Origin: Chrysoperla carnea
Taxonomy: Eukaryota > Arthropoda > Insecta > Neuroptera > Chrysopidae
DNA length: 64,000 bases
Direction of reading: 5' to 3'
Assembly: GCF_905475395.1 (NCBI RefSeq)
Contig: NC_058337.1
Location: forward strand, 99,380,368 to 99,444,367
Shown here piece after piece: positions 38,341 to 64,000 of the stretch. The notes under the pieces were generated by a model, which searched no databases, had not been told where the DNA came from, and saw only the letters and a program-made list of their open reading frames with translations. The position numbers and the translations under genes are program-made. Positions within the stretch are counted from its first letter, which is position 1. Each line of letters opens with the position of its first letter.

Positions 38341-39862
38341 GAGCTCCGTATAGTTAGCAGATAAAATTGTTATTTTTCACTCAAACTATTTCCATTCATT
38401 TGGGAATCGTTTGGGAGGATTTGGGAATATAATTTTAGAATTTGGGAATGATTAGTTTTCCTGTAATTAATGATTCTTTTTTCAGCGTATAGTTAGCAGG
38501 TAGGAAATTAAATCCACTTAATTTTTATGTTATTCGAAAGGAAATCATTTGGGAATTACGATAAACACGGTTTCAGAGTTTGGGAATGTATAATTAATTA
38601 ATTACACCTATTTTTTAGTTGATTGATAGGTTACGTTAATTAACCGTACACCAATTGAACCATTAATTGTTATATAGCAGTATGGCGCCAATATTCAAAT
38701 ATTACTGAATAATTTATTTTATAATTTATGTAAATGTTAAGTTTAATTTTTCATTAAAACTTTTCTTATTCAAATGGGAATCGTTTGGGAAGATTTAGGA
38801 ATATAATTTTATTATTTAGGACTGATTAGTTTTCATGTAATTAATTAGTTTTTCAAAGCGTATACTTAGAAGATAAAAAATTAAATTTTTCATCATTTCT
38901 ACGTTATTTGATAATAATTTACATGGAGACTAATCTAATTAATTAGGGAATCACATTAAACACGGTTTCATCATTTGGGACACTAAAATTATTTAATTCA
39001 TTACATTTATTTTTTAGTTGACTTTTTGTGGTTATTTTAATGGCGGCAATATTCAAATATTACTTCATTGACAATTTTTTTAATTTATGCAAATCTTAAG
39101 TTTTTTTTCCCTTAAAACTGTTCTTATTCAATTGGTAATCGTTTGGGAAGATTTAGGAATATAATTTTATTATTTATTTCCGCCATTAATATAACCACAA
39201 AAATCAACTAAAAATAAATGTAATTAATAAGTTAATTATACTTTCCCAAATGATGAAACCGTATTTAATGTGATTCCCAAATAAGTTAGATTAGTCTTCA
39301 TGTAAATTATTATCAAATAACGAAGAAATGATGAAAAATTTAATTTTTTATCTTCTAAGTATACGCTTTGAAAAACTAATTAATTACATGAAAACTAATC
39401 AGTCCTAAATAATAAAATTATATTCCTAAATCTTCCCAAACGATTCCCAATTGAATAAGAAAAGTTTTAATGAAAAATTAAACTTAACAATTACATAAAT
39501 TATAAAATAAATTATTCAGTAATATTTGAATATTGGCGCCATACTTCTATATAACAATTAATGGTTCAATTGGTGTACGGTTAATTAACATAACCTATCA
39601 ATCAACTAAAAAATAGGTGTAATTAATTAATTATACATTCCCAAACTCTGAAACCGTGTTTATCGTAATTCCCAAATGATTTACTTTCGAACAACATAAA
39701 AATTAAGTGGATTTAATTTCCTACCTGCTAACTATACGCTGAAAAAAGAATCATTAATTACAGGAAAACTAATAATTCCCAAATTCTAAAATTATATTCC
39801 CAAATCCTCCCAAACAATTCCCAAATGAATGGAAATAGTTTGAGTGAAAATATACGGAGCTC
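38341..39862. mobile_element. Foldback element (about 1.5 kb, long inverted repeat)
   Basis: Arms of about 0.67 kb (38380-39047 and 39180-39850) are mutual reverse complements with few differences, around a loop of about 130 bp. The loop itself resembles an inner segment of the arm. The outer ends are GAGCTCCGTATA and TATACGGAGCTC. The right arm lacks about 20 nt next to its end that are present in the left. There is no transposase. A shorter relative lies at 45683-46275. Confidence 0.75.
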
Positions 39863-41490: not shown

Positions 41491-41599
41491 TCACTTTTTA
41501 TTTTTAAGTTCTGTACATGTGACACTCATATTAATAAGAAAATAACAAATTAAAATCTTTCTTTATTTATAAATACACATTTTAATGTAATTAATTAAA

Positions 41600-43660
41600 A
41601 TGTCAAGAGATTGTTGCGACATTAATAATCCGATTCTAATAAACAATGCGATGGTTTTAAAAAAACAAAAAAATAATTCGATGATACTTAAAAATGAAAA
41701 CAGTACAATTGAACAATTGCATTCTGAATTGATAAATAAACATGCTGCAGATGAATTATTAGAAATATCAAATTCAAGTGATGTTAGCGATGAAACATTT
41801 TCGCAACCAAATAATCTACTTGCGTTTCAAGAAAATTTTGTTTCAAGTGATGTTTATGAGAAAACAAATGTATCTCAAAGTAATTTTGTAATTAAAAATG
41901 AAAACATTAAAATTTCCGAACAACTTCATTCAGTGTTAATTATTAAAAATGATGTTAGTGATGAAATATCAGAAGTAAGTAATTCGAGTGACAGTGAATT
42001 GGGAATACTTGGGCAACAAACCAATATACTTGAATGTGAACGAAATTATAGTACAGACGATACGGGAGAAAAAGATATTGCGTGTGATGAAAAATTTAAT
42101 GATGCAAATAACTCAACGGTCGTTAAAAATAAAACTATTAAAGATGAACAACTGCATACAGAGATAATTATTAAAGATGATGCTGAAGAGGGTACTAGTG
42201 AAAGTGAAATATTAGAAGAAAATAATTCGAGTGATGATGAAATGGAAATATTTGGGCAACAAACCAATATACTTGAATGTGATGAAAAATTTAATGATGC
42301 ACATAACTCAGCGATCGTTAAAAATGAAAGTATTCAACAACTGCATACAAAGCTAATTATTAAAGATGATGCTGAAGAGGGTACTAGTGAAAGTGAAATA
42401 TTAGAAGATTCAAGTGATGTTGGCTATGAAACATATATTCACGCTAGAAACAAAACATTTTCATGTAATGTTTGTGATAAAGTATTTATGCGGCAAAAAA
42501 AATTAAATAGACATAAACTTATTCATACTTTAAAAAAAACATATTCATGTGAAATTTGTAAAATGTCTTTTTTGGGACATGCCCAATTAGTTGTTCATCA
42601 ACGATTTCATAATGTAAAGGTTGTTCTTGAACGTATTCATATTACTGGAAGTCTTCCGAGAGAAAGAAAATTTTCATGTAATGATTGTGACAAATCATAT
42701 TTTCGGTATACTGATTTAGAAATACATAAACGTATTCATACTGGAGAAAGGCCTTTTTCATGCAATGTTTGTAAAAAATCATTTCGCGCAAATAGTACTT
42801 TAAATCATCATAAAAAAACGCATACTGGAGAAAAGCCTTTTTCATGTAATGTTTGTAAGAAATCATTTTACAAAAATGGTAATTTAATTAGACATAAAAG
42901 AACGCATACTGGAGAAAAACCTTTTTCATGTGATGTTTGTGATAAATCATTTACGTCCAAGGCCAACTTAGTTGAGCACAAAAGAACTCATAGTGGAGAA
43001 AGACCGTTTTCATGCGACCTCTGTGATAAAACATTTAAGTGTCGATCTGGTTTACGAAGACACAAACGATGGCACACTAGAGATAAAACTTTCTCATGTT
43101 ATGTTTGTCATAAAAGATTTTTGCAAAAAGGCAATTTATACAGGCATGAACGCATTCATACAAGGGAAAAACCTTATTCATGTGACGTTTGTGATAAAAC
43201 ATTTAGCTATTCAAGTAATTTAGTTAGACATAAAGTTGTTCACACTGAAGAAAGGCCATTTTCCTGCGATGTTTGTGATAAATCGTTTAAAACGAAATAC
43301 GAAACAACTATGCACAAACAAATTCATACTGGAAAAAAACCTTTTTCATGTGATGTTTGTGATAAATCATTTACGTCCAAGGGCAACTTAGTTGATCACA
43401 AAAGAAACCATACCGGAGAAAGACCTTATTCATGTAAAGTTTGCAATAAATCATTTAGTTCTCAAAACAATTTAGCTAAACATAAAGTTATTCACATTGA
43501 GAAAAGGCCATATTCATGTGATGTTTGTGATAAATCATTTAAAACGAAACAAGTAAGAGCTAAACACAAACGAATTCATTCTAGAAGAGAGGAGCTTTGT
43601 GATTTTGATAAACCGTATTCATATGATATTTGTGAGAAAAAAATTTATTCATCGGATTAG
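41600..43660 (+). CDS. C2H2 zinc-finger protein (13 fingers) with acidic N-terminus
   Basis: A 686-aa single-exon ORF. Residues 1 to about 280 are acidic and Ser/Asn-rich, with internally repeated stretches (DDAEEGTSESEILE twice; FGQQTNILEC and LGQQTNILEC). From about 288 on there are 13 C2H2 fingers with TGEKP/TGERP-type linkers, implying sequence-specific DNA binding in the nucleus. The ORF ends when a finger (KPYSYDICEKK) loses its first Cys and an A-rich run (after GAG at about 43634) shifts the frame; finger coding continues downstream. No BTB, ZAD or KRAB domain is visible. It may act as a 13-finger factor, or be the front part of a longer damaged gene. The family expands readily in insects, so no orthologue is proposed. 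Confidence 0.75.
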   Translation: MSRDCCDINNPILINNAMVLKKQKNNSMILKNENSTIEQLHSELINKHAADELLEISNSSDVSDETFSQPNNLLAFQENFVSSDVYEKTNVSQSNFVIKNENIKISEQLHSVLIIKNDVSDEISEVSNSSDSELGILGQQTNILECERNYSTDDTGEKDIACDEKFNDANNSTVVKNKTIKDEQLHTEIIIKDDAEEGTSESEILEENNSSDDEMEIFGQQTNILECDEKFNDAHNSAIVKNESIQQLHTKLIIKDDAEEGTSESEILEDSSDVGYETYIHARNKTFSCNVCDKVFMRQKKLNRHKLIHTLKKTYSCEICKMSFLGHAQLVVHQRFHNVKVVLERIHITGSLPRERKFSCNDCDKSYFRYTDLEIHKRIHTGERPFSCNVCKKSFRANSTLNHHKKTHTGEKPFSCNVCKKSFYKNGNLIRHKRTHTGEKPFSCDVCDKSFTSKANLVEHKRTHSGERPFSCDLCDKTFKCRSGLRRHKRWHTRDKTFSCYVCHKRFLQKGNLYRHERIHTREKPYSCDVCDKTFSYSSNLVRHKVVHTEERPFSCDVCDKSFKTKYETTMHKQIHTGKKPFSCDVCDKSFTSKGNLVDHKRNHTGERPYSCKVCNKSFSSQNNLAKHKVIHIEKRPYSCDVCDKSFKTKQVRAKHKRIHSRREELCDFDKPYSYDICEKKIYSSD

Positions 43661-45110
43661 TTTAGTTAATCATAAACTAAATCACACTGGAGTCAAACCA
43701 TTTTCATGTGATGTTTGTGATAAAACATTTTTTCAAAAGGGAAATTTAGATAGACATAAACTTATTCACACCGGAGAGAAACCCTTTTCGTGTGATGTTT
43801 GCAATCAATCATTTAACGTTCAATCCAATTTGGTTAAACATAAACTTATTCACGTTGGTGACACGCCATTTAAATGTGATATTTGTGATAAAGCATTTCT
43901 AGTGCAAAGTAACTTAAATAGTCATAAACTTACTCATACTAAAGAAAAACCATTTTCATGTAATGTTTGCAATAAATCATTTAGGCACAAATCTAATTTA
44001 GTTGCGCATAAACACAGTCACACTGGGTTAAGGCTATTTTCATGTAATATTTGTAGTAAATCATTTATTACTAAAAGGACTTTAGTTATTCATAAACGTT
44101 GTCATACTGGACAAAAATCCTATTCGTGTGATGTTTGCGATCAGAAATTTTCGTTAAAACAATATTTAATTCAACATAAAATTTTTCATACAGGAGAAAA
44201 AAAATTTTCGTGTATTATTTGTAAAACAGCATTTGCTTATCGAAGCAGCTTTAAGCAAATATAAAATAATTCACACTGGAGTGAGACGTTTTTTGTGTGA
44301 TATTTGCGATAGACCTTTTAAAACGAAAAAAGATTTAGTTCAACATGAACGACTCCATAGTGGTGAAAAACCATTTGTATGTAATGTTTGTAATAAAGCA
44401 TTTGCACAACACAGCAGCTTCTACAGACATAAAAAAGTTCATAATAAGATACTTTGTGATATTTGTGGTAAAATATTTAAGTGTGAACAGGATTTAAATA
44501 AACATGAACGGATACATGGTGAAAATCCATTTTCTTGTGAAATTTGTAATAAATCATTTAAAAATCAAAGAAATTTAACAAATCACAAACGATATATTCA
44601 TAGAACAAAATTATTTTCATGTGATGTTTGTAAAAAATTATTTTCCATACATAGTCAATTAGTTCGACATAAACAGATTCCAGTAAAATAAAAACGTTCT
44701 CTTGTGATGTGATTTAATTAAACATAAACGAATTCATCCGAGAGAAAGATCATTTTCATGTAATGATTGTGATAAGACATTTTTTAAATCTTCTCATTTA
44801 GCAGTACATAAACGCATTCATACTGGAGAAAAGAAATTTTCATGTAATGTTTGTAAGAAATCATTTTACACAAATGGTGATTTAATTAAACATAAAAAAA
44901 ACGCATACTGGAGAAAAACCTTTTTCATGTGATGTTTGTGATAAATCATTTACGTCCAAGGCCAACTTAGTTGTTCACAAAAGAACAGATAGTGGAGAAA
45001 GACCGTTTTCATGCGACCTCTGTGATAAAACATTTAAGTGTCGATCTGTTTTACGAGGACATAAACGATGTCACACTAGAGATAAAACTTACTCTTGTTT
45101 ATTTATGTAT
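43628..45110 (+). pseudogene. Frameshifted continuation of the C2H2 zinc-finger array
   Basis: Finger coding continues in other frames. 43640-44264 has a partial finger plus six full fingers; an inserted A near 44252 (with His to Tyr) then breaks the next one. 44264-44691 has four full fingers and one whose last His is Pro, then a stop. 44700-45110 holds further fingers with a deletion and another extra A near 44901, ending in unrelated sequence (CLFMYYLNYV). The final part (about 44839-45096) is nearly identical to 42841-43096, so it is a recent internal duplication. The indels lie in A-rich runs, so assembly error is possible for some. Ligand losses and the deletion argue for real decay. 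Confidence 0.7.
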
Positions 45111-45675: not shown

Positions 45676-45682
45676 CCTGAAC

Positions 45683-46275
45683 CATTAATTGTTATATAGC
45701 AGTATGGCGCCAATATTCAAATATTACTGAATAATTTATTTTATAATTTATGTAAATGTTAAGTTTTATTTTGCCTTAAAACTGTTCTTATTCAATTGGA
45801 AATCGTTTGGGAAGATTTAGGAATATAATTTTATTATTTAGGACTGATTAGTTTTCATTTAATTAATTAGTTTTAATTAATTTTACATAAATTATAAAAT
45901 AAATTATTCAGTAATATTTGAATATTGGCGCCATACTGCTATATAACAATTAATGGTTCAGGTGTACGGTTAATTAACATAACCTATCAATCAACTAAAA
46001 AATAGGTGTAATTAATTAATTATACATTCCCAAACTCTGAAACCGTGTTTATCGTAATTCCCAAATTATTTCCTTTCGAACAACATAAAAATTAAGTGGA
46101 TTTAATTTCCTACCTGCTAACTATACGCTGAAAAAAGAATCATTAATCACAGGAAAACAAATAATTCCCAAATTCTAAATTTATATTCCCAAATCCTCCC
46201 AAACGATTCCCAAATGAATGGAAATAGTTTTAGTGAAAAATAACAATTTTATCTGCTAAGTATACGGAGCTATAA
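45683..46275. repeat. Short relative of the 1.5-kb foldback element
   Basis: Contains the inverted pair GAACCATTAATTGTTATATA (45683) and TATATAACAATTAATGGTTC (ending near 45960) around shared foldback sequence. It then has a single right arm ending TATCTGCTAAGTATACGGAGCT. It keeps the 20 nt missing from the right end of 38341-39862. Confidence 0.65.
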
Positions 46276-47276: not shown

Positions 47277-47898
47277 GTAAGTCCTTATGAATTTGTTTTT
47301 GTAGTAGTGATTGCTTTCTTTTTTATTCCAGATATTTTTAATATAAAATTATCACTTTCATGTTTCGAGGAGGATATCCTTGAGACAACCATTTTTAATA
47401 GATATAGTTTTCCCACTTAAAATTAATTTCACAACTTGTTTGAGATTATTTTCAGTAATTTAAATCTGTATTTTTTATTTATGCATTTTTTTTTTGTTAT
47501 TTTAGAATAAAAATCCATTATTTTTTTAGTTTTTCTAAGAATTGTGGAAAAAATCAGCATTTTTTTTTTATATTGAGAAATTAAAACAATACTATAAATC
47601 GATAAGAAAAAAGGAATTAAATAATTTATTAATAATTAATACCTTGGTAACCATTAATAAACAAACATAATGTTTCTAGGCTTAATGCAGTCTTAATTTA
47701 AATAGGGATAAACTAATGTTTCTTATCAATATTTAAAATAGAAATGGTTTTTTAAAGGTAAAATAAATATGGTGTAACATTTTGGGTGTTAACAAATATG
47801 TTGGGTTTTGCTGGAAAGCATTTTTAGTAGCCATTTTAATATATAATTGTAATTTTGTGTTTCCTTCTGTTAGTACATTTTAAACGAAATAAATCAAG

Positions 47899-50800
47899 AT
47901 GGATACTACTTTGAATGCCGAGTTGATTACAAAATCGCTCAATTTTCATGGACAGCAATTACAAAAATTGTGGGAAGGTGAACGTGGTGAACAAGATTTA
48001 GCTAAACGAAATGTTAAAGACCCTGACTTCCATGTTTATGCTCAAAGACAGGCACATTTATCATTTCAAGATCGCGGCAAAAGGTTGAAATTACAACAAT
48101 TTATTGCTAAGAAAGCTGATGTATTATTTTCGAATGAAATATGTGAAGATATTCCACAATGTGATGTACCAAGTACGGATGATGTTTATGCAGTAATGCC
48201 TCCGTTGGAGGTTTATTTAAATATTGATAAGCAGAGTCGTCTACGATACTTTTTTCAGGTTTGTACTTACGTTAGGATTATGCTGCTAGTTATCCAGTCA
48301 AATTACACTTTCTAATCTCTATTCTATTCTCTCCTTCTATTTTATGGACTAATTTGACTGAATAATAGTATTGATGTTACAGTTCATTAATTTAATTTTC
48401 TTTACTCTAGAATGTGAAAAAGGGTGATTATATTTTGGGAACAATTGCAAGTAAATCTCCTTCTGGTATGATGCTTAAAGTGCTCTGTACTTTAGGAGCC
48501 CGAATGCGATATGTTGCTGATATTAATGTAAAGGTAAACAATAAAAAAATTTTCTATTTACTCAAATTCTTATGTTGAAATTCTATTATCCATACAAGCT
48601 AATAGTCAAAATACACAAAAATTATCCCGCTATACCTGCTGTTTTTAATTCTGTGACAGAATATTAAAATTTAATGAGAATAGAAATGTTTATCGATAAA
48701 TTTTTATGTTATGTTGTTCGATTTTCGATAGTTGAAAGTGTTCTATTAATGTTATAATCGTAAAAGTTGGATGAATTTAAATTTTGTAGAAACTTTATAT
48801 AATTAGCTTATATATTATAATAGGATAAAGGTATAATTTATCTTGCTACGATAACGATAGCCGCAGATGTAACGAAAAACTAGACTACCTCCCAATACGC
48901 AGATATTTTTAAAATATGATACTTGTATATTCTAAACCAAGGTTTCTACAGCTCCTTGAAAGGTACTGAAATCTTAGAATAGGTCTGGAACAAGAGAACT
49001 GGAATATAAAATTTTAAGTTCTCTAGACACCTCGTAAACTAATGCCCATAATTGACCAAGGGATGGAATTTAAGTTGGTGTTTAGGGAGAGGGGATAAGT
49101 TAATTGAAGGTTAGCATGTGATGGATTCATCTTAACATCTATAACGTGGTAGTCTTTGTTCAACTTAAAATTCCCTAGCAAAGCGGGTGAAACCCCGCAT
49201 GCACAAGAAATTCATGTAGCCATTTCTCTGAAGTTCTGAAAGTTTTATACATTTTTTAGTTTTCGATTCGTTATTTCAAAAACTGCTTTATATTTTATTG
49301 AAAAATTCATTCTATGCTTGGGAAAACTCACCATAAATTTTATTTTGAACATCTGCAACGGAGTGAGATAGAATAACCGAGTGGTGGGGAGCTTGAATTG
49401 AAGTCAATTTAAAAAAAGAAGATTAATTGAAGGTCAATTTAAAAAAAAATAGGATACATTCTGTTTGCTATAAATGAAGAAGTTTATTCCTTAGCTATTA
49501 TAATTTGAATATTCGGCATAAAAAAATCGATTCTAACACCAAAATCCATTCTTAAAAAATTCGTACTATTCGCACCACTTTTTAACTTATCGTTATTAAC
49601 AGTTAAAATTTTCAAATCAATTTGCTGTTAAGGTAGTATGTCACACAGACAGTTAACTGTGATATTTGTGCTGATGCTCCTTCAGTTTGATATTCTTTAA
49701 ACTATTTTTGATTATTAATGATAATTCTTTTTTTTTTAACTATAGGCTGCCTGCCCAACAGCGAATATAATATCCGCTGTTGATAAAAAAGGTGCTTCAC
49801 GAAGTTACATGATGAATGATTCAGTATGCTGTGAAGTGGTTGAAGTAGTTCCTGATTGTGACAAGATGGTGTGCAGTATGAAAGGAAATTCTCCTGCACC
49901 TCCTGGATGTCCACCATTAGGTCTTGTCTCATCCGATGATTTTCCATTATTATACAAGTAAGCTACAAATAATATTTTTCTTTTGAATATTTTGTAGGTT
50001 TGTTCAATATAAAATGCACTGCTTGGTTTAGCAAACTGTTTTTTCGAGTGAAGATACTTTTCTACCAATTATACTTAGATTCATGCGATTCCACTGCAAT
50101 TTGCCTACTTAAGAATAGAAATTTTTAAAAACAATTTGACATTCGTGATTTATTTTTGGGACGAAACACTACTAATAGTTAGCAAACTGGAAATTTTTTT
50201 ATTGATTTTTATTTCCTAATGATTGGAAACTATTGATTCAATCATTGGCTGATTTTTTCAACTTCTGATTCAAATTTTTAATAGGAATAGAGAACAGAAT
50301 GTTATGCAAAATTTAAATCGAATGGCAGCACTGTAATTTGTACCTAATTGTACAGGCGCACCTGTGTGTGAACCAAATGAGCACAATTATAGAAAATTAA
50401 ACACAAAAGTATTCTCACAGTTAAAGCAAAATCAAAGTGACTATTTTTGTACATGTTACATTGGCGCCTTTTGATTTTTTGTTTCGTAGAAGAAAAATTG
50501 TACTAGAAGCTGACATGGAAGTTGGGATTTAAATATGAAAGATGAAGTTCCCAAATTAAAATTTTGTTTCGTATGAATAATTTATTTGAAATTTATAAAA
50601 TTACTTTTTATGTCATGTAACATGGTAGTACCGATCATAATTGGTGATAAAAATTTAATGATTTAATCCCGAAATCGTTATATCCGTAAATCTAATTATT
50701 CCAAAATTTAGTCTTAAAAAAAATGAAAGCATTTTTTTTTCCGAATATATACAACATTTTGACCTACGATTTCGGTTAAAATTGCAGTTTTTTAAGGCTT

Positions 50801-53800
50801 AACCGTTTTTTATACACTTTTACCTTTTAAATCTCTATATCAAGTAAAGTTGACAAAATTTAAAAAATCCCCCAACAAATTTTGGGTATGGAACCCTAAA
50901 CTCGCGCTTGAAACATAACTAAGAACACTCTCCGTTCAATTACCTTTCAAACGAAACAAAAAAATCAAATCGGTTCATTTCTTTTAGGCGCTACGATACC
51001 ACAAACAGACAGATACATACATACATAGCGGCCAAACGTATAACACCAATTTTTTTAGTTCGGGGTTAAAAATTAAATGTAATTTGTAAACATCACTTAT
51101 TATAGTTACAATTTTAAGCTCTAGATGTCACAGCGAACCATGTCAGTTTCCAATGTTTTGATTTAAAGGAATGTTCGTGATTAATTTGATTAAATGAATT
51201 AATTCCTAAAAGAGTTATTCGGTCTAAACTGGTTTCTACCATTTATTATTTTTTGAACTTTGCAAAAATAGAATAATTAGTAAAGGTTAAATATTCTTAA
51301 GTAGTGCAACTTATAAGTAAACAAAATGTTTTGAAAGCAATTCGCATAGAAGTGACTTACAAACATTTTATTATTTAATTAGAAATGTAACCAATTTATA
51401 TAATGGAAGGAGAAGGAAAATCACACATTTTTCATCACAATTTTTTATTAACAAATCAATTTGACGTTACAGCACAAATGATCGTTTAAAAGGTTTAAAA
51501 AATCAAATTAAAGGTGTGCGTTATTTTCAAAACTACACACTAAATAAAAATTACAAAATGAACAAAAATCTGAATTGAATGAGCACAAATTTATATTTAT
51601 AAAAATAAATTCGATACCCCATTTATATAAATAAATATACATCAATAACTGCCACATATGTCTACTGCAATACTACTGAGAAGCAAGTGTGGCATTATTT
51701 TTTGATGCTTTAATTTTGCTAATTTCTACATCTGATCGTTTATAACAGGTGAGGATATTGATAGGTGTGGGTATTACATTTTAAATAAAAAACAAAATAT
51801 ACTTGGGGGAATATTAACCAGCAAACTACGATTTTTCATAATACAATCTAGAAAATTTTTTATTCATTATTAACAATAATTTTTCGTACTAAATTTTAAG
51901 GTTTTTAACGTAGTTCCAGCATGGTATTTGCAGTTTCTATGTTAAAGCAATGGTACAATTTTTTTTTCGACAGAATTTAACGAAAAATTAAATTTAAGAA
52001 TTTAATAATGCTTACTATTAATTCCCAAAGTTTCAGAAATTTTGACCGTTTAAAATGGGAAATAATTATGCCAACGTCCCAATTTCGATCAATTTACGTC
52101 AAAATTAATATCTCGAAAGTGAAAATTAATTTCTAAATTTTTTTTTTAGAATTTTATTGTATAAACATTTTTTTCTACTTTTTCTTCAATATATAATAAT
52201 ATCATAAAAAATAGTTGGAGAGACCGGACATTTTACATGCTTTAAATGGGACATGACCCTCAAAATCGCGAACTTTGTCTTTAAATATCTCGCGATCTAA
52301 ACGGTCAAAAATTATGAAATTTTAGGAATTCATAAATAAAGCTATTATAAACCCGAGAAAAAGAATTCGGCCAAATCTGTCGAAAAGTGATTTCATGCTG
52401 GTACTACCTTAAGGTGTTCTAAGTATGTAAAAACAGTACGAAATTATTTGACATTGTAAAAATACATTTGAAAACGAAATAATCATAACACGTACACTCC
52501 GTCATCTGAAGTATTCTAAGAAAATGTAATCTCGATTTCAATTACTCTAAATGTGTACAAAATATGTCTGGCCGACTACTAAGAGCTATTAAATAAATTA
52601 TTTTAAACTGTAAACCATACTCGTTTATGTTTTCAGATTAACATTACAAGTTTAAACAAGTTCAAACATGTTTTCTAGATCGTTACTAGGTACTAATGAT
52701 TTAAAACAACAATTATTTTCGAAATTTTCAAAATTATTTGTACAGGATTAGTTTGTGTTGAGCTAGTCATAATTTACTACTGTTTTTTTACATAATACTT
52801 TATAACATCTTCAATAGAGAAGTTACATTATTTTTTTTCATACAAATTCATATATAAAAAAAAAACTTGATTGTGACGTCTAGAAATCCGATGTTGACGT
52901 ACTGGCGTTTGAATTTCCAGCTTAGAAAAAAAATTCAATTGTTAGTAGAGTGAAATTACGCCTTGTGTATGGATTAAAAGTTCGAGCAGTGAAACTTTGG
53001 GGTTTTTCTTTTCACATCAAAATAAGTATTTTTTGAAATTTTTTACTTTCCCGGAGTGGTGTTTAAAAAACAAAATGGCGTCAAAAATGAAATTTTTTTC
53101 AGAAATTTTATCATTTTTATTTTATATTCGCAAAAGGAGACATCGGTGCATATCCAAATTTGGTAGGTTTGTATTCCATGTTAAGAACTACTCCTCATAA
53201 TTTTTTGGTGGGGTTTCGTCCCTTGCCCTCCCAGTTATATATATATGTATAAATACATATGGTAAAACAGTTCATTTGACTATAACTTGAAAAATATTCG
53301 ATTGATTTTAATGAAATTAATACCAATAGTAGGTTTTATTACTTACAACTTTCGTTTAAAATTTTAGCGAAATCCGTTAAATAGTTCGGCCAAAATTTCC
53401 AATTTAGGGAATTGTTTAAAATGGCTGCCATTTTATGCCATTTTGTCCTACGAGGTTAAATTTTTTTTTAAATTGTAGCATTTTTTATTATCTTTCGATT
53501 TTATAATAAGTGGCTTACCCGTAAAATGACTCCTTGATCCATATTTTTGCGAAAAACGGAAAATTTAACACTTTATGGAAATAATTGTTTGGGGGGTGTA
53601 TGGACGGGCTTTGGGGGGTGTTTTTTGCTTTGGCATGAGAAAACTATTTTTAAAAGAGGTCTCTATATGGTTTAAAGCAAAATTTTTAAGTTTTAACCCC
53701 CGTGCTGTAAGGGGGAAGGGGTGTATGAAATAAATGTATCTTAAAAGATTTTAAAAAGAGGTCAAAATAGTTTAAAATGCTAAAGTAACCCAAAATTTTA

Positions 53801-56800
53801 GATGTTTTTAATAATATAGTACTTTTTACAACATCCACCCCTTCCCCTCCCGCTTTCATATTTTTTGCAAATTCAAAATTTTTATGACGTATAAAGGGGT
53901 TTTTTGGGTCGCTGATCTCGAAATTTTGGGTTACTTTAGCATTTTAAACTATTTTGACCTCTTTTTAAAATCTTTTAAGATACATTTATTTCATACACCC
54001 CTTCCCCCTTACAGCACGGGGGTTAAAACTTAAAAATTTTGCTTTAAACCATATAGAGACCTCTTTTAAAAATAGTTTTCTCATGCCAAAGCAAAAAACA
54101 CCCCCCAAAGCCCGTCCATACACCCCCCAAACAATTATTTCCATAAAGTGTTAAATTTTCCGTTTTTCGCAAAAATATGGATCAAGGAGTCATTTTACGG
54201 GTAAGCCACTTATTATAAAATCGAAAGATAATAAAAAATGCTACAATTTAAAAAAAAATTTAACCTCGTAGGACAAAATGGCATAAAATGGCAGCCATTT
54301 TAAACAATTCCCTAAATTGGAAATTTTGGCCGAACTATTTAACGGATTTCGCTAAAATTTTAAACGAAAGTTGTAAGTAATAAAACCTACTATTGGTATT
54401 AATTTCATTAAAATCAATCGAATATTTTTCAAGTTATAGTCAAATGAACTGTTTTACCATATGTATTTATACATATATATATAACTGGGAGGGCAAGGGA
54501 CGAAACCCCACCAAAAAATTATGAGGAGTAGTTCTTAACATGGAATACAAACCTACCAAATTTGGATATGCACCGATGTCTCCTTTTGCGAATATAAAAT
54601 AAAAATGATAAAATTTCTGAAAAAAATTTCATTTTTGACGCCATTTTGTTTTTTAAACACCACTCCGGGAAAGTAAAAAATTTCAAAAAATACTTATTTT
54701 GATGTGAAAAGAAAAACCCCAAAGTTTCGCTGCTCGAACTTTTAATCCATATAACAGCCTTTTTTTGCTTAGATTTACTCCAGTATGTTAAATTACATAA
54801 AAAGTCAATTAAAAAAAAATTTTCTTTTAATTTATATTTATAAATTTTAGTAAACTTTCCAAAATTTAAAAACATGCAACTTCTCTATTAAGTAGCAAAC
54901 AGCCTACTAAGCAACTAAAAAGGCTTTTGAAAAAATATTTGAAATTTTCTCGAATCATTAAGATTAGCAAACCATATTTTAAAGAATCACTTCGTGATTT
55001 CCTTCTTTTCGTTTAACTCATTTTGTTTTAAAAATTTTTGTTTTAGTTAGACTCCTTACCGATGATCAATAAAAACTATACGATACGCTTGCAAAATATG
55101 TGCATGAGTTCATGTAATCCACAGTAATTCAATAATAAGTCGCTGTTATAATATCCAAAATTTTTAGAGAAAAAAAAAAGGAAAAATTTAACATTTTAGA
55201 TCTATAATTTTGATCTCTGGTACTTTTTATACTTATTTTACAGTTTTTGAGTTATTTGTAAGAATAAATTTTTGTAAAATGTGCAAATATTCGAAAAAAT
55301 GAAATTTTAACCCGTAAAGTACGTCACTTAAAACGCTCGTATTAAAATTATAACTATTTAAAAACTAATATGCATCCTTGTGTTAAAATCCTAATCGTCT
55401 GATGGTTGCTAGGTTGGATAGTCGATGATAAGAAAAGAATCTCTACACCTGACTGAGAAGTTCGGAGTTTTCGAGATATTCGGTTTTCGGCTGCTAGAAG
55501 GAGTAAAATTAAAATTATTTTCTGACATTACTTACTAAAGTTTAATTTTAAACACTTCGAGTAACTTTTTTTTACAGTGCTCGATAAATCCTAGTTAAAT
55601 CCCCCATCTAACAGTCGGAAACAGATTTTCAAAACGCCGGATTTCCCTGCTAGTAGCCAAGTGTAGAGGAAACAAAGGCCTTGTTGTTATCACCAACTAT
55701 CAACCTACCCATCATTTGACGGTTAAGATTTTTACACAAAGCGTAAACAATTTTGTTCGGTTAAATACGTTGTTTATTGAGATAATAAAGGCGTTTCTTA
55801 AATAAGACATGGAAAAGAGTTATAATTAGGTGTAAGCTTTAGATCATCACCGATCTCCATAAATACCTTAGTTAAAAATTAGTAAATAATTTTTATGTGC
55901 GTTATGGTAAGTAACAAAATCTTTTTCCTTATTCCATGTACTACAGACCCTACCAAATTAATTATATTTTAAACGTAAGCGATTTACTTGGTCATAGAAT
56001 TGGTACGAAAATTTATTGTTAAATGAATAAATTTGGCAACAGATATTTTAAATTTTGGATCATAAAATTAAAAAAATACATTTATAAAATTAACGAAGTA
56101 ATTATTTAATATATTGCACGCTTTTCAAAAAACGAATCCTAATATTCATAAAACAAAATCGTTTAAAAATTATTTCATATATTGTAGAGATCCAAAATGT
56201 ATTCAGAAAGGTGATCTAAATAAAAAAAAAACGTTATAAAAAAAAACTACTACATAAGACAGGATGTTTCAAAAATTTATATAAATGTATAAAATAAAAT
56301 TGTCGTTTTGAAGATAAATTCCATCTTCAAATAAATAAAAAAACAGGAAGAAGTTTTTAAAATATAATCAAAGAGTCACTTCTGTTTCAAAAGTATGTTT
56401 TATGTCTCACACACAAATTTTTACAGCATATTGTTTTTAAACAAAACAACTATCAAATTGATCTGAGCAATTTCGTTTTAATTTTATATTCAAAAGATAA
56501 TATTTGATGGTATGTATTTAGGGTTTTTACTACAAATCACAAAATTTCTTACATTATATATAATGTCTCAATTTGTTTAACACTTCCTGTTAGGCTATTT
56601 GGATAATAATTGGAGTTTTGTTTGTTCTTTGGTTTTGTTTAGAAAAGCATTGGATACTAAAGGGGAAACCTATGAAGCTGTTCTTGAAAAAAGTGTTGGA
56701 TTCAACAATCCGAATAATATCAACTATTTATTTGGTGTTTTTGGATTAAATTCCCAACCGTTAAGCAACATGCTTGGATTGAGGTAAATTTTATGCATTA

Positions 56801-59800
56801 ATTTGTTAAACTATCTAATATAATTCCAATCGCCGTACATAGCTGTTTTTGACAAAAGTGTTGTGTGTTAAATTTTTAAAGATTATAGCCTTAATACTTC
56901 CCAGACACAAGGAAACTTCGGGCATTTACAGCAGGGTTCTCGTCCGTCTCGTTATCAAGAAAAAATTTATTATAATTATTGCATCTTAATTTTCAAAAAA
57001 TAACTGTCAATTTCTTAATCTAATAATCAATATGTTTAGGTAATATGTTTTAAATAATTATTTTTAATTCGATTTTTTTAAATTTTAAATAGGTCTCGTT
57101 TTCCTCAACAAGAATATGCTAGCGAATTAAGGCAGGTACAAGCTAGCGCCTGGGCTTTTCGTAGTGTAGCTGACGGTATAAAACATTTTAAAGAAGGACG
57201 TCATACTGAAGCTTTTCAGTGTTTAAATAAAGCTTTAACAATTGATCCAAGAAATGTTGAAGGTCTTGTAGCGCGTGGTGCTCTTTATGCAAATAGTGGA
57301 AGTTTTCAGAAAGCAATTGATGAATTTGAAACAGCATTAAAATTAAATCCGAGCCATGCAAATGCTCGGAAATATATGGGTGAAACACTAGTTGCTTTAG
57401 GTCGTAGTCACGAAGAAGAAGGAAAAATTGACGAAGCGCGTAAAGCTTATCAGAATTGCTTGAATATTATACCATTCCATGAAGAGGCGCAACATTCTCT
57501 GGAATATTTACAAAATAAAAATAACACTAACAAAATTGTAGCATCTGATGATCTATTATTGCCTAATCTAGCTACATCATCAAATAAACAAGCACCTACA
57601 ACAAACACTGAAGTTACAGATTCATTAAAACAATTTCTACGTAGCGAAGATGAAGAGAAAAAAGAAAAGAAAAAGAAGAAAAAATCTAAGAATCGTAAAC
57701 GTAGACATCATTCTTCGTCATCAAGTTCATCTTCTGGAAGTACAGCAAGTTCACGTAGCTCTAGTTCGTCATCATCAAGCAGTTCAGATTCCAGTTCTGG
57801 TTCTAGTTCAGATTCGAAATCAAAACGTAAAAAACGTAGATCTCGTCGTGATCGCCATGAAAAACAAAAGTCACTATCACCATTAAGTAAGCGAATGGCC
57901 ATGATGGATCCTAGTCATGATACGCCCACTAGTTTTCAATTTAATAAACCAGCGGGTGCATCTTCGTCATTTGATTTTGGATTTGAGCAAGCACAAGACC
58001 CACCTAAGGCTAATAAAGATTTGGAATATGAATTAAAAGTTAGAAGTTTCTTAGAGCAGAATAAGGAAGATGATTCTGATTATGAAGATCGGGTAAGTTA
58101 TTTGGTCTTTATATTTACACATTTAATTATTTCTATTGTACAAAAAAATTTCGAGTATCAAGTTTGAGTAATGACAATGACAGTATATATCCAAGTTATT
58201 AACTATATAATAATTTATATGTTTTTTGTGTATTAAATTGTCAAAGATTACCTATAATTAATGAGGATTCTATGTGTTGGAAATAATATTTCAAATTCAC
58301 CACAAATCCTAGATCAAATTTTTGTATACGTATTTCGACTACAATTTAGTCAATATCAATAAAATTGTGAATTTATTTTGTTACAGGTTAGAAAATTTTT
58401 AGAAGAAACGGCTCGTTACAAAAGTAAGAAGTCAATTGAGGATAAAAAGAAAAAGAAGAAGAAAGATAAGAAATCAAAGAAAGAAAGTAAAAAGAAACGT
58501 AAAGAAAAAAAACTAGCAAAGGCACAGGCTAAAGAATTAGAATTAAGAGATGCATTACGTAAGGAGCTAGGTTTTTCAACTAAAGAAAAAAAGAAGAGCA
58601 AACGATCATCTTTAGGATCGGATGAAGAGGATTATTTACTTCGCAAACATGGAATTAGCAAAAAGTAATTTCTTTTAAATTTGATTAATTTTGTGTTCTG
58701 TGTTTTATTATTTTCAGTGTTTAGGTATAGAATTTCAGTCAGTATATGTTCAAAATTGGCTATATAAATTAAATTGATTATTTCTGGAATCGTCACTATG
58801 GCAAGTAGCAGTTTCCGTGGATTATAAAATATTGCGTACAAAATAATGTTTTTACTTACATGTGTAAAAAAAAGAATAGATTGCTGATTGTATGAAATGT
58901 GGATATCTAAAATTCACTACAAAACCCAGTTATTCAATTAGAATGAGACTGTACTTAGCTTGTAGTTCGTAATGTGTGTTACTTTCCAGGACTTGAGCAA
59001 GTTTTAATGTTGGCTAATTTTAAAAATTATATAAGTGATTACTATAAAGATAAGCTCTCACATCAAGATTTAAGCTCTCGTGTTTTTTCAAATAAATATA
59101 ATTTTTAATGAAATAAAATGGTGATACATTTGAACTTATTATACAAATATTCTAAAAAGGAAACAGCACTTTAGGCGAAAGTACCAAAAAGTTGTCTATT
59201 TTGCATGAAGAACTTCTTTTTAAACAACTTCACTAAAGCCAATTTTCATAAATAACAATGGAAAAAGTATATTATATGACAACAAACGTTGATCGCCGTA
59301 TATATTGAATTTTTTACAGATTGGATTGGATTTAATTTTTAATCTATCCGAAGTGTATGTAACTAAGCAAAAAAATGTCGATTTGATAAATAATTTCAGA
59401 AGATGTTTTGCCGATTTATTAAATTTATTTATTTAATGAAAATTTAAATTTATTTCAAAAGACTGGTATTTTAATTATAATTGAATTTTTTGTTTTCCTG
59501 GCTATCTTTAAAAGTTAGTTAAAATAATTTTCATTTTTCCAGACTTTTGGATAGTCTACCGGATCTTGATGAATTAGAAACAAAATTAAGTGCTTATTAT
59601 GCCATTGAGAAAGCTGAAAAAAGGTAACGTTGATATTTTAACACAATCAGTAATTTTTGCTAATGTTTTATTTATATTCCAGTAAAAATCGCAGCCCATC
59701 TTCTAGTCCAGTCCAGCGTTTTGATAATTCACCCTCACCAACTAGGGAACAGAAAGCTCGTCAAACAGTTGCTGAAGCTGCAGCAAGTGCTCAAAATGCA

Positions 59801-61214
59801 GCTTTTCCAAAATGGCGAATGCAAGTTGGAAATACCAATGCTTCAAGTAGTGGTTCTAGGTACAATTAATCGAAAGTAACATTTAATAAATTAATAATAC
59901 TGATAAAATTATTTGATTTATAGATTTAAAAAGAAAACAGATCGTGAGGATTGGGATGAAGAGAAACCCACTAAAGAACCAACTCCTAAATTAGGTCCTA
60001 GCGCTGAAGAAAAAGCTATTAGTATTCGAAAGGCAATGGCTATGAAAGAGACTCCTAAAAAAGAACCTCAAGAGCCACCTAGACGTCGCCCTCTTGGTAG
60101 CCCTCCTCCAAAACCACCACCACCAAAAGCTCCTCATTCTATTAACACATCGGGGCCAGTGGTTCTCGATAAATTCGGTAATTTTCGTATTGCATCACCG
60201 AATACAGCTAAAAAATTACAACAAGACGAGGATTTACCTCCTTTACCTCCTGGTGCTCCCCCTCCACAAAGTATTCCATTCCCGAAAAAATTAAATAGGC
60301 CTCCAGAGCCTCCCGGCCCACCACGTTCTTATAGTAGATCGCCAGGACGTAAACGACGAACACCAAGGTCTAGAAGCCATTCCAGATCAAGCAGTCATTC
60401 ATCTAGATCGCGCTCTCGATCTCGAAGATCTCGCAGTCGTTCTCGATCTTATTACAGTCGATCTCGTTCCCGTAGTGGCAGTCATTCATATTATTCACGT
60501 AGTCGTTCGCGTTCACGCTCACGATCTCGTTATTATGATCGTCGTGGCGGTTATCGTGGTCGATTTAATGACCGCGGAACGTACTATAAACCGAGATTCC
60601 AAGGATATAAATCTCGAGGATTTGTTAGTCGCGGAGGAAGTCGTGGTGGCTATAGAGATTATAGAGATCGAGATCGCGATGATAGGTATTACGATCGTTA
60701 TCGTGGAAGAGGTCGACCTTATAACAGAAGTCGAAGACCAAGGGGTCGGTTTGGGCGAGGTGGCTATCGAGATGATAGATACAGAAGATACGATCGTAGG
60801 TCAGATTCTCGTAGCATAAGTGGAGATCGTAGTTACAGTAACGATTCAGATCGTGATCCAATGACTAAAGTAAATGAGGAAAAAGAAAAGATTAATAAAT
60901 ATATAGATAGCAATGATCCACCAACTAAACACGATGGACCTTTGAGTGAGGGTGAAGATAGAGATGATTATAATGGAGATAAAATGGTAGATCGTCAACA
61001 GTATGAAGGTAAATGGGCAGATAAAGAGGATGGTGAACATAATGGACAACCGCCAGAACCACCACCAGAACCCTCGACATCTGAAAGTAAGGAAAAAATT
61101 CCATCTGAAACAAATATCGAGGAAATGGATAAATTTTTAACTAAGGTAAAAAAGGAGAAAAGAGAGGAGATGATTGAGCGTAATAAAGATGTATTGAAAA
61201 GTAAACCTTGGTAA
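47899..61214 (+). CDS. TTC14: TTC14-like protein: S1 domain, TPR repeats, RS/RG-rich tail
   Basis: Nine coding exons: 47899-48258, 48411-48533, 49746-49957, 56643-56783, 57093-58092, 58387-58664, 59543-59623, 59683-59859 and 59924-61214. All are GT-AG and in phase; 3663 nt, 1220 aa. Residues about 120-230 form an S1-type RNA-binding domain ([20 protein letters not shown]). Residues about 215-280 ([30 protein letters not shown]) match the TTC14 signature segment. Residues about 295-425 are TPRs ([39 protein letters not shown]). A Ser-rich run, Lys-rich coil, Pro-rich segment, RS repeats and an RG/DRY-rich region follow. Likely a nuclear RNA-associated protein; the biochemical role of TTC14 is poorly defined. 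The S1-TPR part is sure. The long tail is joined by splicing logic rather than homology, so transcript data would settle whether exons 7-9 are always included. Confidence 0.85.
50760..51070. repeat. Dispersed insect repeat, copy 2 (inverted)
   Basis: The sequence GGAACCCTAAACTCGCGCTT ... ACACTCTCCGTTCAATTACC ... TTTTTTTAGTTCGGGGTTAA is the reverse complement of 18680-18960, with moderate divergence. Confidence 0.6.
52968..54751. mobile_element. Near-perfect 831-bp inverted repeat (foldback/hairpin) in intron of TTC14-like gene
   Basis: Arms 52968-53798 and 53921-54751 pair at a constant coordinate sum (107719) wherever compared, i.e. with no net indels, and only rare mismatches were seen (for example near 52988). 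The loop is 122 nt. The 66-residue frame at 52997-53200 on plus recurs identically on minus at 54519-54722, confirming identity; it is not conserved coding. No transposase is present. The intron transcript would fold into a dsRNA of about 830 bp. Confidence 0.85.
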
Positions 61215-61423
61215 ATTTCAGGCCTAGTCATAAACACAACACAATACCATCCTGTCCACCAATACAGACGAACAGACATTAGTTCTTTAGAGTTCTATGT
61301 CCTTAAATTAAAGTAAGATTTCTAATCATTTTTAATCATATTCCTAGGGAAATATTGCCGTGATATTTCTTTATGAAGGTTCAGTTTTGATTTTATTTTG
61401 TATTAGTTGTAAGTTTCATTATT

Positions 61424-61434
61424 AAATAAATAAA
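61424..61434 (+). terminator. Polyadenylation signal of the TTC14-like gene
   Basis: Overlapping AATAAATAAA about 210 nt after the stop at 61214, at the end of a plausible 3' UTR. Confidence 0.5.
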
Positions 61435-61449
61435 AATTTATTTATAACA

Positions 61450-64000
61450 AATTCTTGTATTATTAGTTATTACTCTCCCTATAAGTTGATTGTGGTTGCA
61501 AGTTTCTCTTTCTGTAAGTCTATGTGAAGTTTCGGAAGTGAGGTTATTTATTAATTTATTTGGTAAGTAAAACTAATTAAAATAATACATTTTATTACAA
61601 AAGTTAAATTAAACATCAATACAATACTTTTTTTCGAATAGTTAAAAAAAATCTTTAAATAATTAATATTTGGGAGTAATCAAATTTTTAGGTTATGTTT
61701 AGAATTTAACAAATAAACAAATTAAAACCTTAGAATTTATGAGAACCATAAATAGTAGGTACGCTTCTTTATTGCATTCTTTGATCAATAGAATTAAAGA
61801 GTTTATTTTAAATAAAAATGTTGTGTTTAGAAATATAAATTTTATAAATATAATATATAATTCACATTCATTTACAAACGGAGTGAGCACACGGATTTTT
61901 GGAATGTAGTTAAAAACCAATGAAAGAAAAAAGAGAATTCTATTAATTTTGATATTCTGCTAAGATTCAATGTTGTAATTGTAAAATTAAACCCTTATTA
62001 TTTTTATTTTTTATAGTTCGCAAGTGTGTAGCAAGGTGGCGCATGCTAAGTTATAAATATTTTTGTTAGGAAAAAATGAAATAAACAATTTATTATACTC
62101 TTAAAAATAAATTAAATTTTTATTATATTTTATGCTGTTTTATAATATTTTTATTTAATTTAGTATATTTTCTTTAACTTAGGTAAGTGGTGTTAATTAT
62201 TTTATCATTTACTATACTTTTCGAACTTTCTGTCATTGACTTACCTAAAATAGAAGTAAAATAGTTAGTACCTATTTTATTTTATTTTACGATTATAGTT
62301 GTTATTCAAGTTGCTTGCAAAAAAAAAAAACAAAAACAAAGGGTAAAAAGTTTGCAACTGTCAACAGTTGAAAAATCGAAATATTGAAACGTCAAAAAAA
62401 GAAAACCTTGTAGAAACCAAGAAATTTATCTCCATCAATTCTAAAATTATCCAAATGAAGACAAAATGTTTTATAACAATTTTGCTTCAATATATGGGCT
62501 TAGCTATACATACACTACCTAGAGTTACTCGCTAGATATACTTAAACTGAGCGACGCGACGTTTATCCCAGAAAATTCCCGGAACAGTTTGTCATACTAC
62601 AATAAATGCTTATTGATAAGTTTTGCAAAGAAACCTTCATCTTGCCTTATTTTATATAAGGTATGGACTTCAGCATTACCATCAAGCATCAATTGTTTCA
62701 ATCGAATTTCTTCTTCAATTTCTTCCAGCATTTATAGGCGTGATAGAATATTGCGATCACTCATTTTACTTACACTTTAGTTTTTAACAGTCAAGTATTA
62801 TTATGTTATTATTTGAGTTTGTTTTTAACTCTAATGTAGTTCTTTCTTTCATACAATAGTGTAGGAAGTGTTTGTTAAAATTTTTTTAATATAATTATCT
62901 CTCTTCAACCAGCAATACTTTATACTATTATTATAGTCGTTTCCGTTCAACAATAAAATTTATTAACTTGGCGTTATTATTTCTCAAGATTGAAATGGCC
63001 AATAATTTTTTTTCTAAACTCTAGAATACTTAAATACATCAATGTTTTTTCTAGAATTAAAAAACTTGTGAAAAACACAACCTCTTCTATGCTCTTCATG
63101 TTAGTTATCCGAAGTTTAATTATGTTTATCTTGAGTTAGAGACGGTCAATCGACTTCAAATTTTTATGGTAATAGTATTATAATATCTTTAATAAGTTAA
63201 AAAAATCTAGATTTTTCTGACAATATGCCCATAGTGAGACAACAATATTAAGAGCTTATTATTCTTGAATCAATCTGTATGTCTAATGAAAGCTAGTTAT
63301 GTAATATTTTGTATATTTTATACTGTTTGAGTTAGATTGAGGTTGTTAAAGCAATATCATAATCTAAAAAAAGCCTTCGTTTTGAATGGTTTGAATGTAC
63401 ACCTCTTTTGTTTATCTGTTCCTTTCCTGCATGTGTAGAATCCATTTAAATTAAATAACACAATAATGGCATTGTGAGATATGAAAAAGAGACGTCATCT
63501 GAAATATATTTCCTTGATATTGAAAGAAAACTTTTCATCTGAAAGGAGAAAGAACGAATAAGAATGAACGGACGGACTATTACAACTACAACAAGAAGAA
63601 AGTGGAAATGTTTCTAAAGAAGAACACAAGTACATACGCTCTATTCACAACAATTGTTCACAATTCAAAGACGATCTTTTGATGAAATCGATCGGCCGTC
63701 ACCAACAATACGTAACTATGCATACGTATACAGGCTGATTTTTTAAAAGATCACAGATTCTTTTTGTACCCACAATTATGTGTCGAAACGGAATAGAAAA
63801 TCAAAAAACTGAAACATGTATATCTCTTTTTTAGGGGGAACCAAAATATAGTAGATATTAAGTTTTCTTATATAGGATGTCTTCACGATTAAACATAGAT
63901 CAACTTTGTTGTATTTAAAACCACGTATTTTTTGTAGCAGATTGTTCTTCTTTGGGCAAAAGAAAAAATTTTTTTCTAGTCCTCAATTTTGACACATGAT
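61450..64000. other. Intergenic DNA right of the TTC14-like gene
   Basis: AT-rich sequence without recognisable genes or transposon ends, apart from a short disrupted minus-strand ORF at 62597-62764. Confidence 0.5.
62597..62764 (-). pseudogene. Short disrupted ORF, unknown (coil-like)
   Basis: On the minus strand, ATG AGT GAT CGC ... reads MSDRNILSRL. A TAA follows, then MLEEIEEEIRLKQLMLDGNA and further charged residues (LYKIRQDEGFFAKLINKHLL), ending at TAG. The even mix of Glu, Lys, Leu and Ile and lack of low complexity look protein-like, such as a short helix or coiled coil. I do not recognise the family. It could be a processed-gene fragment, or an exon if the TAA is a sequence error. 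Confidence 0.3.

What the first reader, a model, noticed from the sequence alone, without database searches (positions are those of the whole stretch)
52968..54751. Long, near-perfect hairpin inside a TTC14-like intron
The 831-bp arms have almost no mismatch and a 122-nt loop. Because the intron is transcribed, the RNA could form long dsRNA and feed Dicer-2 to give hairpin-derived endo-siRNAs, or be edited by ADAR. Such perfection means recent origin, conversion between arms, or selection.
Basis: partly seen in the sequence, partly recalled or inferred. Interest (0 to 1): 0.7.

Follow-up and report, generated by a model that had tools for sequence, protein, structure and literature searches.

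The report
Self-correcting palindromic transposon in lacewing intron
The long hairpin is one copy of a common, gene-less, palindromic jumping element of a green lacewing, and its two halves are nearly identical most likely because one half gets copied onto the other, which makes the family a useful natural test bed for how palindromes evolve.

Summary
The hairpin is real and its coordinates are exact: 831-nt arms, 830/831 identical, 122-nt loop. It is not a one-off. It is a shortened (1,843 bp) copy of a non-autonomous foldback DNA transposon with roughly 500 copies in this genome, very probably Chrysoperla carnea. Complete copies are about 2,044 bp: two unlike short ends, two ~958-bp arms, a ~67-bp spacer, and a 3-bp target duplication (46 of 49 end pairs examined). 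The window copy lost the spacer plus part of one arm; its '122-nt loop' is arm sequence. Copying between arms keeps them alike. The window copy differs from the family consensus at 10 scored arm sites, all 10 in both arms. Its 2-bp insertion was found in the assembly only in its own two arms. The spacer lies either way round, 17:19 in 36 chromosome-1 copies. One copy contains an inverted copy of 373 bp of its own flank. So 'conversion between arms' is supported; siRNA and ADAR editing are untested. No transposase partner was found. A known kind of element with unusually clear self-correction and flipping.

The parts
52940..52942 (.). target-site duplication TGT (left)
   Evidence: identical to 54786-54788; 3-bp duplication in 46 of 49 end pairs
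52943..54785 (+). whole foldback element, 1,843 bp, shortened copy of a ~2,044-bp family
   Evidence: both family ends present, TGT/TGT; alignment to consensus
52943..52967 (+). end A (25 bp, begins TAGTAGAGTGAAAT)
   Evidence: 493 genome occurrences with up to 2 mismatches, control 0
52968..53798 (+). arm A, outer 831 nt
53799..53920 (+). inner 122 nt of arm A; unpaired in this copy (the reported 'loop')
   Evidence: found twice, in opposite directions, in 27 of 31 fetched loci (L032 in part; L033, L034, L038 once)
53920..53921 (.). deletion junction: 191 bp of consensus (983-1174, spacer plus inner arm B) missing
53921..54751 (-). arm B, 831 nt, 830/831 identical to arm A
54752..54785 (-). 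end B (34 bp; on the minus strand begins TACTGGAGTAAATC)
   Evidence: its 14-mer found 406 times, control 4, a few chance matches included
54786..54788 (.). target-site duplication TGT (right)
53649..53678 (+). stretch with the 2-bp insertion, arm A
   Evidence: 30-mer with up to 1 mismatch found at two places in the assembly, this one and 54041-54070
54041..54070 (-). same 2-bp insertion, arm B
53050..53080 (+). stretch with the 7-bp deletion, arm A
   Evidence: 31-mer with up to 1 mismatch found at three places: both arms here and C3:25809849
54639..54669 (-). same 7-bp deletion, arm B
49958..56642 (+). inferred host-gene intron (GT..AG) holding the element
   Evidence: exons inferred from ORFs, TPR domain downstream

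Best explanation
The hairpin is a copy of a non-autonomous foldback DNA transposon, presumably moved by a transposase encoded elsewhere that cuts targets with a 3-bp stagger. The two ~958-bp arms of a copy recombine with, or template, each other (gene conversion or replication template switching). This erases differences between arms and, when resolved as a crossover or its equivalent, flips the ~67-bp spacer. The window copy suffered a deletion starting at the arm/spacer border that removed the spacer and 122 bp of arm B, leaving 831-bp arms and an asymmetric loop of former arm sequence. Shown here: family, ends, target duplication, variants shared by both arms of one copy, both spacer orientations, one copy with an inverted copy of its own host flank. 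Inferred: the enzyme chemistry, the transposase source, and whether most events happen in resident copies rather than during transposition.
For: Many copies with the same two ends. 3-bp duplication in 46 of 49 end pairs, among them 19 of 20 short chromosome-1 copies. Window arms: 10 scored variants from consensus, 10 in both arms, 0 in one. The 2-bp insertion was found only in its own two arms; the 7-bp deletion in both its arms plus one C3 place. In 28 copies, the two arms of a copy differ by 7.5 sites on average against 17.4 between copies; summed distance 211 against shuffled mean 477 and minimum 380 in 5,000 shuffles; 73 private variants sit in both arms (20 of them in L041), 139 in one. 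Spacer 17 forward, 19 inverted in 36 chromosome-1 copies; 16:12 in the first 28. Seven orientation changes on a tree of 27, at least three forced by starred branches. L013: 373 bp of A-side flank present inverted on the B side, 372 identical.
Against: The first 31 loci were those whose arms were most like the window arm, not a random sample. A shared private variant could stem from a source copy now lost or unassembled, or too diverged for my patterns, rather than from copying in place; the C3 place with the 7-bp deletion and two further places with the 264G change show that relatives sharing single variants exist. In only 18 of 28 copies is a copy's own other arm the nearest arm; 3 tie and in 7 another copy's arm is nearer, so copying is incomplete. 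The innermost 96 bp is least homogenised (58 single-arm against 10 both-arm variants). No GC bias of shared variants, which some conversion systems show. The tree is poorly resolved (2 of 24 inner branches starred, 19 open). No A-A or B-B elements among the ends compared on chromosome 1, so copying rarely reaches the ends. No transposase found.
Confidence: 0.76

Rival explanations
1. The arms are alike simply because the copy is very young: it inserted recently from a source that already had identical arms, and no copying between arms occurred at this site.
For: The family is not old; relatives such as L009 share some of the window copy's variants in both arms; the 7-bp deletion also occurs at one C3 place.
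Against: The 2-bp insertion is in both arms here and was found nowhere else (up to 1 mismatch). Independent identical changes in two arms are implausible, so copying happened in this copy or in a lineage now represented by it alone. Both spacer orientations are common.
Confidence: 0.17
2. The locus is a functional hairpin-RNA gene: the intron transcript forms long dsRNA that Dicer-2 cuts into siRNAs silencing the family or other targets, and selection keeps the arms matched.
For: It lies in an apparent intron, and a transcript could pair over 831 nt. Hairpin-derived siRNAs from inverted repeats are reported in flies (PMC10317233, PMC10292708, PMC5392987: search listing only).
Against: It is one of hundreds of dispersed copies with transposon ends; arm matching is a property of the family, so no selection at this locus is needed; no RNA evidence was available.
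Confidence: 0.12
3. The inverted structure or its perfection is an assembly or read-folding artefact.
For: Inverted repeats can produce chimeric long reads (recalled).
Against: Unlike ends A and B pair into 83 elements on the first 122 Mb of chromosome 1, 46 of 49 pairs examined have matching 3-bp duplications, and the window copy has its own variants. The matching assembly was made from PacBio reads (HiFi libraries named in PMC10116181, section 0 part 1 of 2 read), which should exceed the 1.8-kb element (read length recalled).
Confidence: 0.03
4. Arm matching and spacer flipping happen only during transposition (for example through a hairpin intermediate copied by repair), not in resident copies.
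For: Would also give about 50:50 spacers and variants shared by both arms.
Against: L013 holds an inverted copy of its own host flank, so at least one event happened after insertion at that locus; this is a single case.
Confidence: 0.25

Closest known systems
Tc4 of Caenorhabditis (fold-back member of the Tc1/mariner group)
   Same: Fold-back transposon with a 3-bp target duplication (TNA; PMC11071193 passages; the original paper PMC51441 is not held). Long arms with a short central loop (recalled).
   Different: Tc4 targets CTNAG; here targets are A/T-rich but varied, with no fixed CTNAG. No transposase found to compare.
Drosophila foldbacks: FB, Galileo, Tetris
   Same: Foldback structure, non-coding or defective copies, rearranged copies and solo arms; no autonomous copy found for Tetris (PMC4079207 abstract and sections 10 and 17; PMC3573991 abstract).
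   Different: Tetris has 8-10 bp duplications and ~220-bp tandem repeats in its arms; Galileo belongs to the P superfamily; here the duplication is 3 bp and no tandem array was found in the element.
Insertion-sequence inversions by TIR-TIR recombination (ISWpi1, Wolbachia)
   Same: Interior inverted by recombination between a transposon's own inverted repeats (PMC3004938 abstract and Discussion).
   Different: There 2 of 22 loci with 23-bp TIRs in bacteria; here about half of the full-length copies examined, ~958-bp arms, in an insect.
Template switching between inverted repeats in yeast; human Y palindromes
   Same: Arm homogenisation and spacer inversion (PMC8604942 abstract and passages); arm gene conversion and rare inversions in Y palindrome P6 (PMC3723533 search listing only).
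   Different: The yeast cases are short repeats in genes; Y palindromes are large single loci, not a mobile family.

Membership tests
Foldback (FB-like) DNA transposons | long inverted arms making up most of the element, short central domain, no coding capacity | tested here: met
   2,044-bp consensus, two ~958-bp arms, ~67-bp spacer; four ORFs in or overlapping the window copy gave no Pfam hit above cut-off
Foldback (FB-like) DNA transposons | mobile: dispersed copies with target-site duplications | tested here: met
   46 of 49 end pairs with 3-bp duplication
Foldback (FB-like) DNA transposons | tandem repeats within the arms (Tetris, PMC4079207; classical FB, recalled) | tested here: not met
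   TRF found no array in the window copy (window 48000-62000); foldbacks without them are known (recalled), so this bears on subtype
Mutator-type foldbacks | 8-10 bp target duplication | tested here: not met
   duplication is 3 bp; 4-bp identity in 0 of 49
Tc4 | CTNAG target with TNA duplication | tested here: not met
   duplications such as TTT, TAT, AGG, TCC, CTT occur
Tc4 | DDD transposase | tested here: inconclusive
   no autonomous copy found by end searches
Zator / AcademX / CACTA / PIF-Harbinger | 3-bp (AcademX 3-4 bp) duplication | tested here: met
   TSD lengths of Zator and AcademX from PMC10045372 passages, CACTA and Harbinger recalled; not sufficient for membership
Zator / AcademX / CACTA / PIF-Harbinger | family transposase | not tested
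   no coding copy in hand
hpRNA (endo-siRNA) locus | 21-nt Dicer-2 products from the arms | not testable with these tools
   no RNA data

The most novel reading that the evidence does not exclude
A mobile, self-correcting palindrome: an insect transposon whose arms are continually recopied onto each other in place and whose core flips until its orientation is random across the genome. Hundreds of unlinked inserted palindromes would then be replicate recorders of arm-to-arm copying, of breakage at the hairpin tip and, in one copy, of capture of Rickettsia DNA.
Probability: 0.55. Interest if true: 0.6.

Novelty: new variant of a known kind. Interest (0 to 1): 0.45.

Why it matters
Long palindromes are mostly studied as single large loci (human Y) or engineered constructs. 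Here one genome carries hundreds of copies of the same ~2-kb palindrome at independent sites, many with marked ends, a marker spacer and private variants. From it one could measure how often arms are copied, how often the spacer inverts, how far copying runs and where palindromes break. It also warns that near-perfect arms are not by themselves evidence of recent origin or of selection for hairpin RNA.

Tried and rejected
Autonomous partner: searches for end A or end B followed by different interiors found family copies, two copies (L042, L043) with another abundant repeat inside end B, and a handful of 14-mer matches with other interiors (6 of 10, control 1; 6, control 2), few enough to be mostly chance; two of those share three more letters of end A and were not read. 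One search had a badly placed ambiguity letter and did not exclude the family; it was used only for end-B counts and positions. Coding origin of the arms: no Pfam hit above cut-off in four ORFs. Viral collection: exact end A gave 0 matches. GC-biased conversion: tested, no sign. Galileo paper searched for conversion or inversion terms: 0 passages.

Breakpoint hot spot at the arm/spacer border: only suggestive. W breaks at 983, three half elements end at 978-982, and 4 of 46 breakpoints that I listed by hand fall within 12 nt of a border (p = 0.026). Of 20 unpaired ends read on chromosome 1 (13 of 14 A, the 14th being L038; 7 of 15 B), several stop near there, but I read only the 900-1100 offset, so that view is biased.

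Rough rate: the within/between ratio implies about one copying event per site per copy over the family's life; this assumes a star-like family, independent arms and my non-random sample, and is only indicative.

Rows dropped: L013 and L032 from arm counts; L013, L032 and W from the tree; W and L041 from the positional bins; from the lists A ends beyond 122.2 Mb and 2 end-B matches with non-family continuations; 4 of 40 full-length chromosome-1 copies because already fetched (with them:20). The short copies are the first 20 of 27 up to 1,310 bp.
Full report
OBSERVATION. The inverted repeat is exact as described: arms 52968-53798 and 53921-54751, 831 nt, one mismatch, 122 nt between. It lies between putative exons of a plus-strand gene; consensus splice letters put the intron at about 49958-56642 (read by eye). 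The exon ORF at 57082-58167 has TPR repeats. Five other ORFs of the gene region gave no Pfam hit (47893-48315 and 59907-61214; three short ones), so the name TTC14 is not independently shown here.

WHOSE GENOME. Contig C1 is 139,979,878 bases long. The paper on Chrysoperla carnea assembly inChrCarn1.1 gives its longest scaffold as 139,979,878 bp, 337 scaffolds, and chromosomes 2, 4 and 5 of 100.74, 77.48 and 76.43 Mb (PMC10116181, section 0 part 1 of 2 read). C2, C4 and C5 are 100,744,152, 77,476,099 and 76,427,138 bases, and G000 has 337 contigs. C3 (94.12 against 94.41 Mb), C6 (38.56 against 38.62 Mb for X) and the total (559.5 against 560.2 Mb) differ slightly, so it may be another version of that assembly. 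The window is very probably from the common green lacewing.

FAMILY. A search with one arm gave 42 matches, two of them the window's own arms, the best others 98% identical; 40 of 1,255 first-look candidates were scored. I fetched 31 loci, the ones most like the window arm. In 28 of them both ends were recognised; 25 of these 28 are 2,041-2,052 bp and follow one plan: end A (25 bp), arm, spacer, arm reversed, end B (34 bp). The others are shortened (L023, L032) or enlarged (L013), and L033, L034 and L038 have one end only. The 2,044-bp consensus was computed from 28 copies, the window copy included and L013 left out. End A occurs 251 + 242 = 493 times with up to two mismatches, control 0; a 14-mer of end B 406 times, control 4. 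On the first 122 Mb of chromosome 1, 97 exact A ends and 98 B ends pair into 83 elements; 40 are 2,030-2,060 bp, the rest 63-2,025 bp. The ends are imperfect inverted repeats of about 14 bp (TAGTAGAGTGAAAT / TACTGGAGTAAATC). A 3-bp duplication flanks 46 of 49 pairs; L012, L015 and L114 fail. It flanks the window copy (TGT/TGT). L042 and L043, copies with a nested repeat, read TTA and ACA by eye.

THE WINDOW COPY. Relative to the consensus it lacks 191 bp (983-1174): the spacer and the inner 122 bp of arm B. The reported loop is the surviving partner on arm A. It is one of many deletion derivatives. All 20 short ones read have internal deletions; most remove the centre, while L106 and L117 keep at least part of it; 19 of 20 keep matching 3-bp flanks.

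WHY THE ARMS MATCH. Relative to the consensus arm the window copy has ten scored differences (nine substitutions, one 2-bp insertion); all ten are in both arms and none in one only. The single T/C arm mismatch was left out of that count because the consensus itself has it. A 7-bp deletion, not scored there, is also in both arms. In the assembly the 2-bp insertion is found at two places, the two arms here (up to 1 mismatch); the 7-bp deletion at three, the two arms plus C3:25809849 (up to 1 mismatch); the C-to-G change at arm position 264 at four, the two arms plus two single places (exact). Copies too diverged for these patterns would be missed. Across 28 copies the two arms of one copy differ by 7.5 sites on average against 17.4 between copies. 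Shuffling partners 5,000 times gave a mean of 477 and a minimum of 380 against 211 observed. Of the private variants, 73 are in both arms (20 of them in L041) and 139 in one. A copy's own other arm is its nearest relative in 18 of 28, tied in 3, and not nearest in 7, so the process is incomplete. Differences between arms are most frequent in the innermost 96 bp. There is no GC bias in the shared changes.

SPACER FLIPPING. The ~67-bp spacer is forward in 16 and inverted in 12 of the 28 first copies that keep it (five were read from the printed sequence because the anchor string was mutated). In 36 further full-length copies of chromosome 1, taken without regard to arm similarity, it is 17 forward and 19 inverted. 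On a poorly resolved tree of 27 copies built without the spacer, orientation changes seven times, at least three times across starred branches; it is not clearly clustered (53-56 of 500 shuffles as low). This is what recombination or template switching between inverted arms predicts. Both outcomes together, arm homogenisation and spacer inversion, are described for template switching in yeast (PMC8604942 abstract and passages).

AN OVERRUN. Copy L013 (C2) has end A at both sides. Its A-side host flank of 373 bp is repeated, inverted, between the B-side arm and the last 77 bp of arm B plus end B. Of the 373, 372 positions agree, and the outer ends still have matching 3-bp flanks CTA. The simplest reading is that synthesis templated by arm A ran past end A into the host flank and then rejoined arm B at a T-run. 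That would have happened after insertion at that locus. It is a single case, it trusts the assembly there, and part of the flank looks by eye like the abundant repeat of L043.

WHAT IT WORKS LIKE AND WHAT IT IS. It works like other foldback elements moved in trans and, in its arms, like a self-correcting palindrome. By structure it is a foldback DNA transposon. The 3-bp duplication excludes typical Mutator foldbacks; the lack of a CTNAG target excludes a strict Tc4. Zator, AcademX, CACTA or Harbinger relatives remain possible, but no transposase was found.

THE RNA IDEA. A transcript of the intron would contain an 831-bp duplex. Nothing here shows transcription, dicing or editing. Because hundreds of copies exist, siRNAs would match the family at large, and arm identity needs no selection at this locus.

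NOVELTY. Ten literature searches were made. In the listings of those on foldbacks and orientation (20, 50, 57, 81) and on lacewings (68, 90) I saw no description of this family or of a 1:1 spacer flip in a foldback transposon. The listings were capped, few papers were opened, and most subscription papers are not held. Inversion by recombination between a transposon's own terminal repeats is reported for ISWpi1. I rate it a new variant of a known kind. On rechecking, confidence in the main explanation was lowered slightly (0.78 to 0.76) because in 7 of 28 copies the nearest arm belongs to another copy.

Noticed in passing
L120/L092/L121 (C1 about 116678971-116680843): One scrambled copy of the family carries an 847-bp stretch 97% identical to the Rickettsia sp. 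MEAM1 (Bemisia tabaci) chromosome inside its A arm, beside a short inverted piece of the element: endosymbiont DNA apparently captured at a break. Its 3-bp flanks do not match (AAT/AAC, by eye). The encoded frame had no Pfam hit above cut-off and no plasmid match.
   Followed up: partly
window 38374-39850: A second, unrelated long hairpin (arms 641 nt, 97%, 195-nt loop) from another repeat family: 110 matches, 40 of 171 candidates scored, many in internally repeated arrays. A second foldback-like family in the same window.
   Followed up: partly
window 3212-5998, 13147-15906, 21819-24623 (minus): Three tandem ORFs of 928, 919 and 934 aa with Vitellogenin_N lipoprotein domains.
   Followed up: partly
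L042, L043; L043:56-635: A ~580-bp repeat with 9,835 first-look candidates (40 scored) is nested in end B of two copies that still have 3-bp flanking duplications TTA and ACA.
   Followed up: partly
window 45676-45962: A perfect 81-nt inverted repeat with a 125-nt loop.
   Followed up: no
window 41591-44691 (plus): ORFs rich in C2H2 zinc fingers; only the first one was put to Pfam and confirmed.
   Followed up: no
C1:114972370-114972570 (L122): Two copies lie back to back with their A ends about 164 bp apart.
   Followed up: partly
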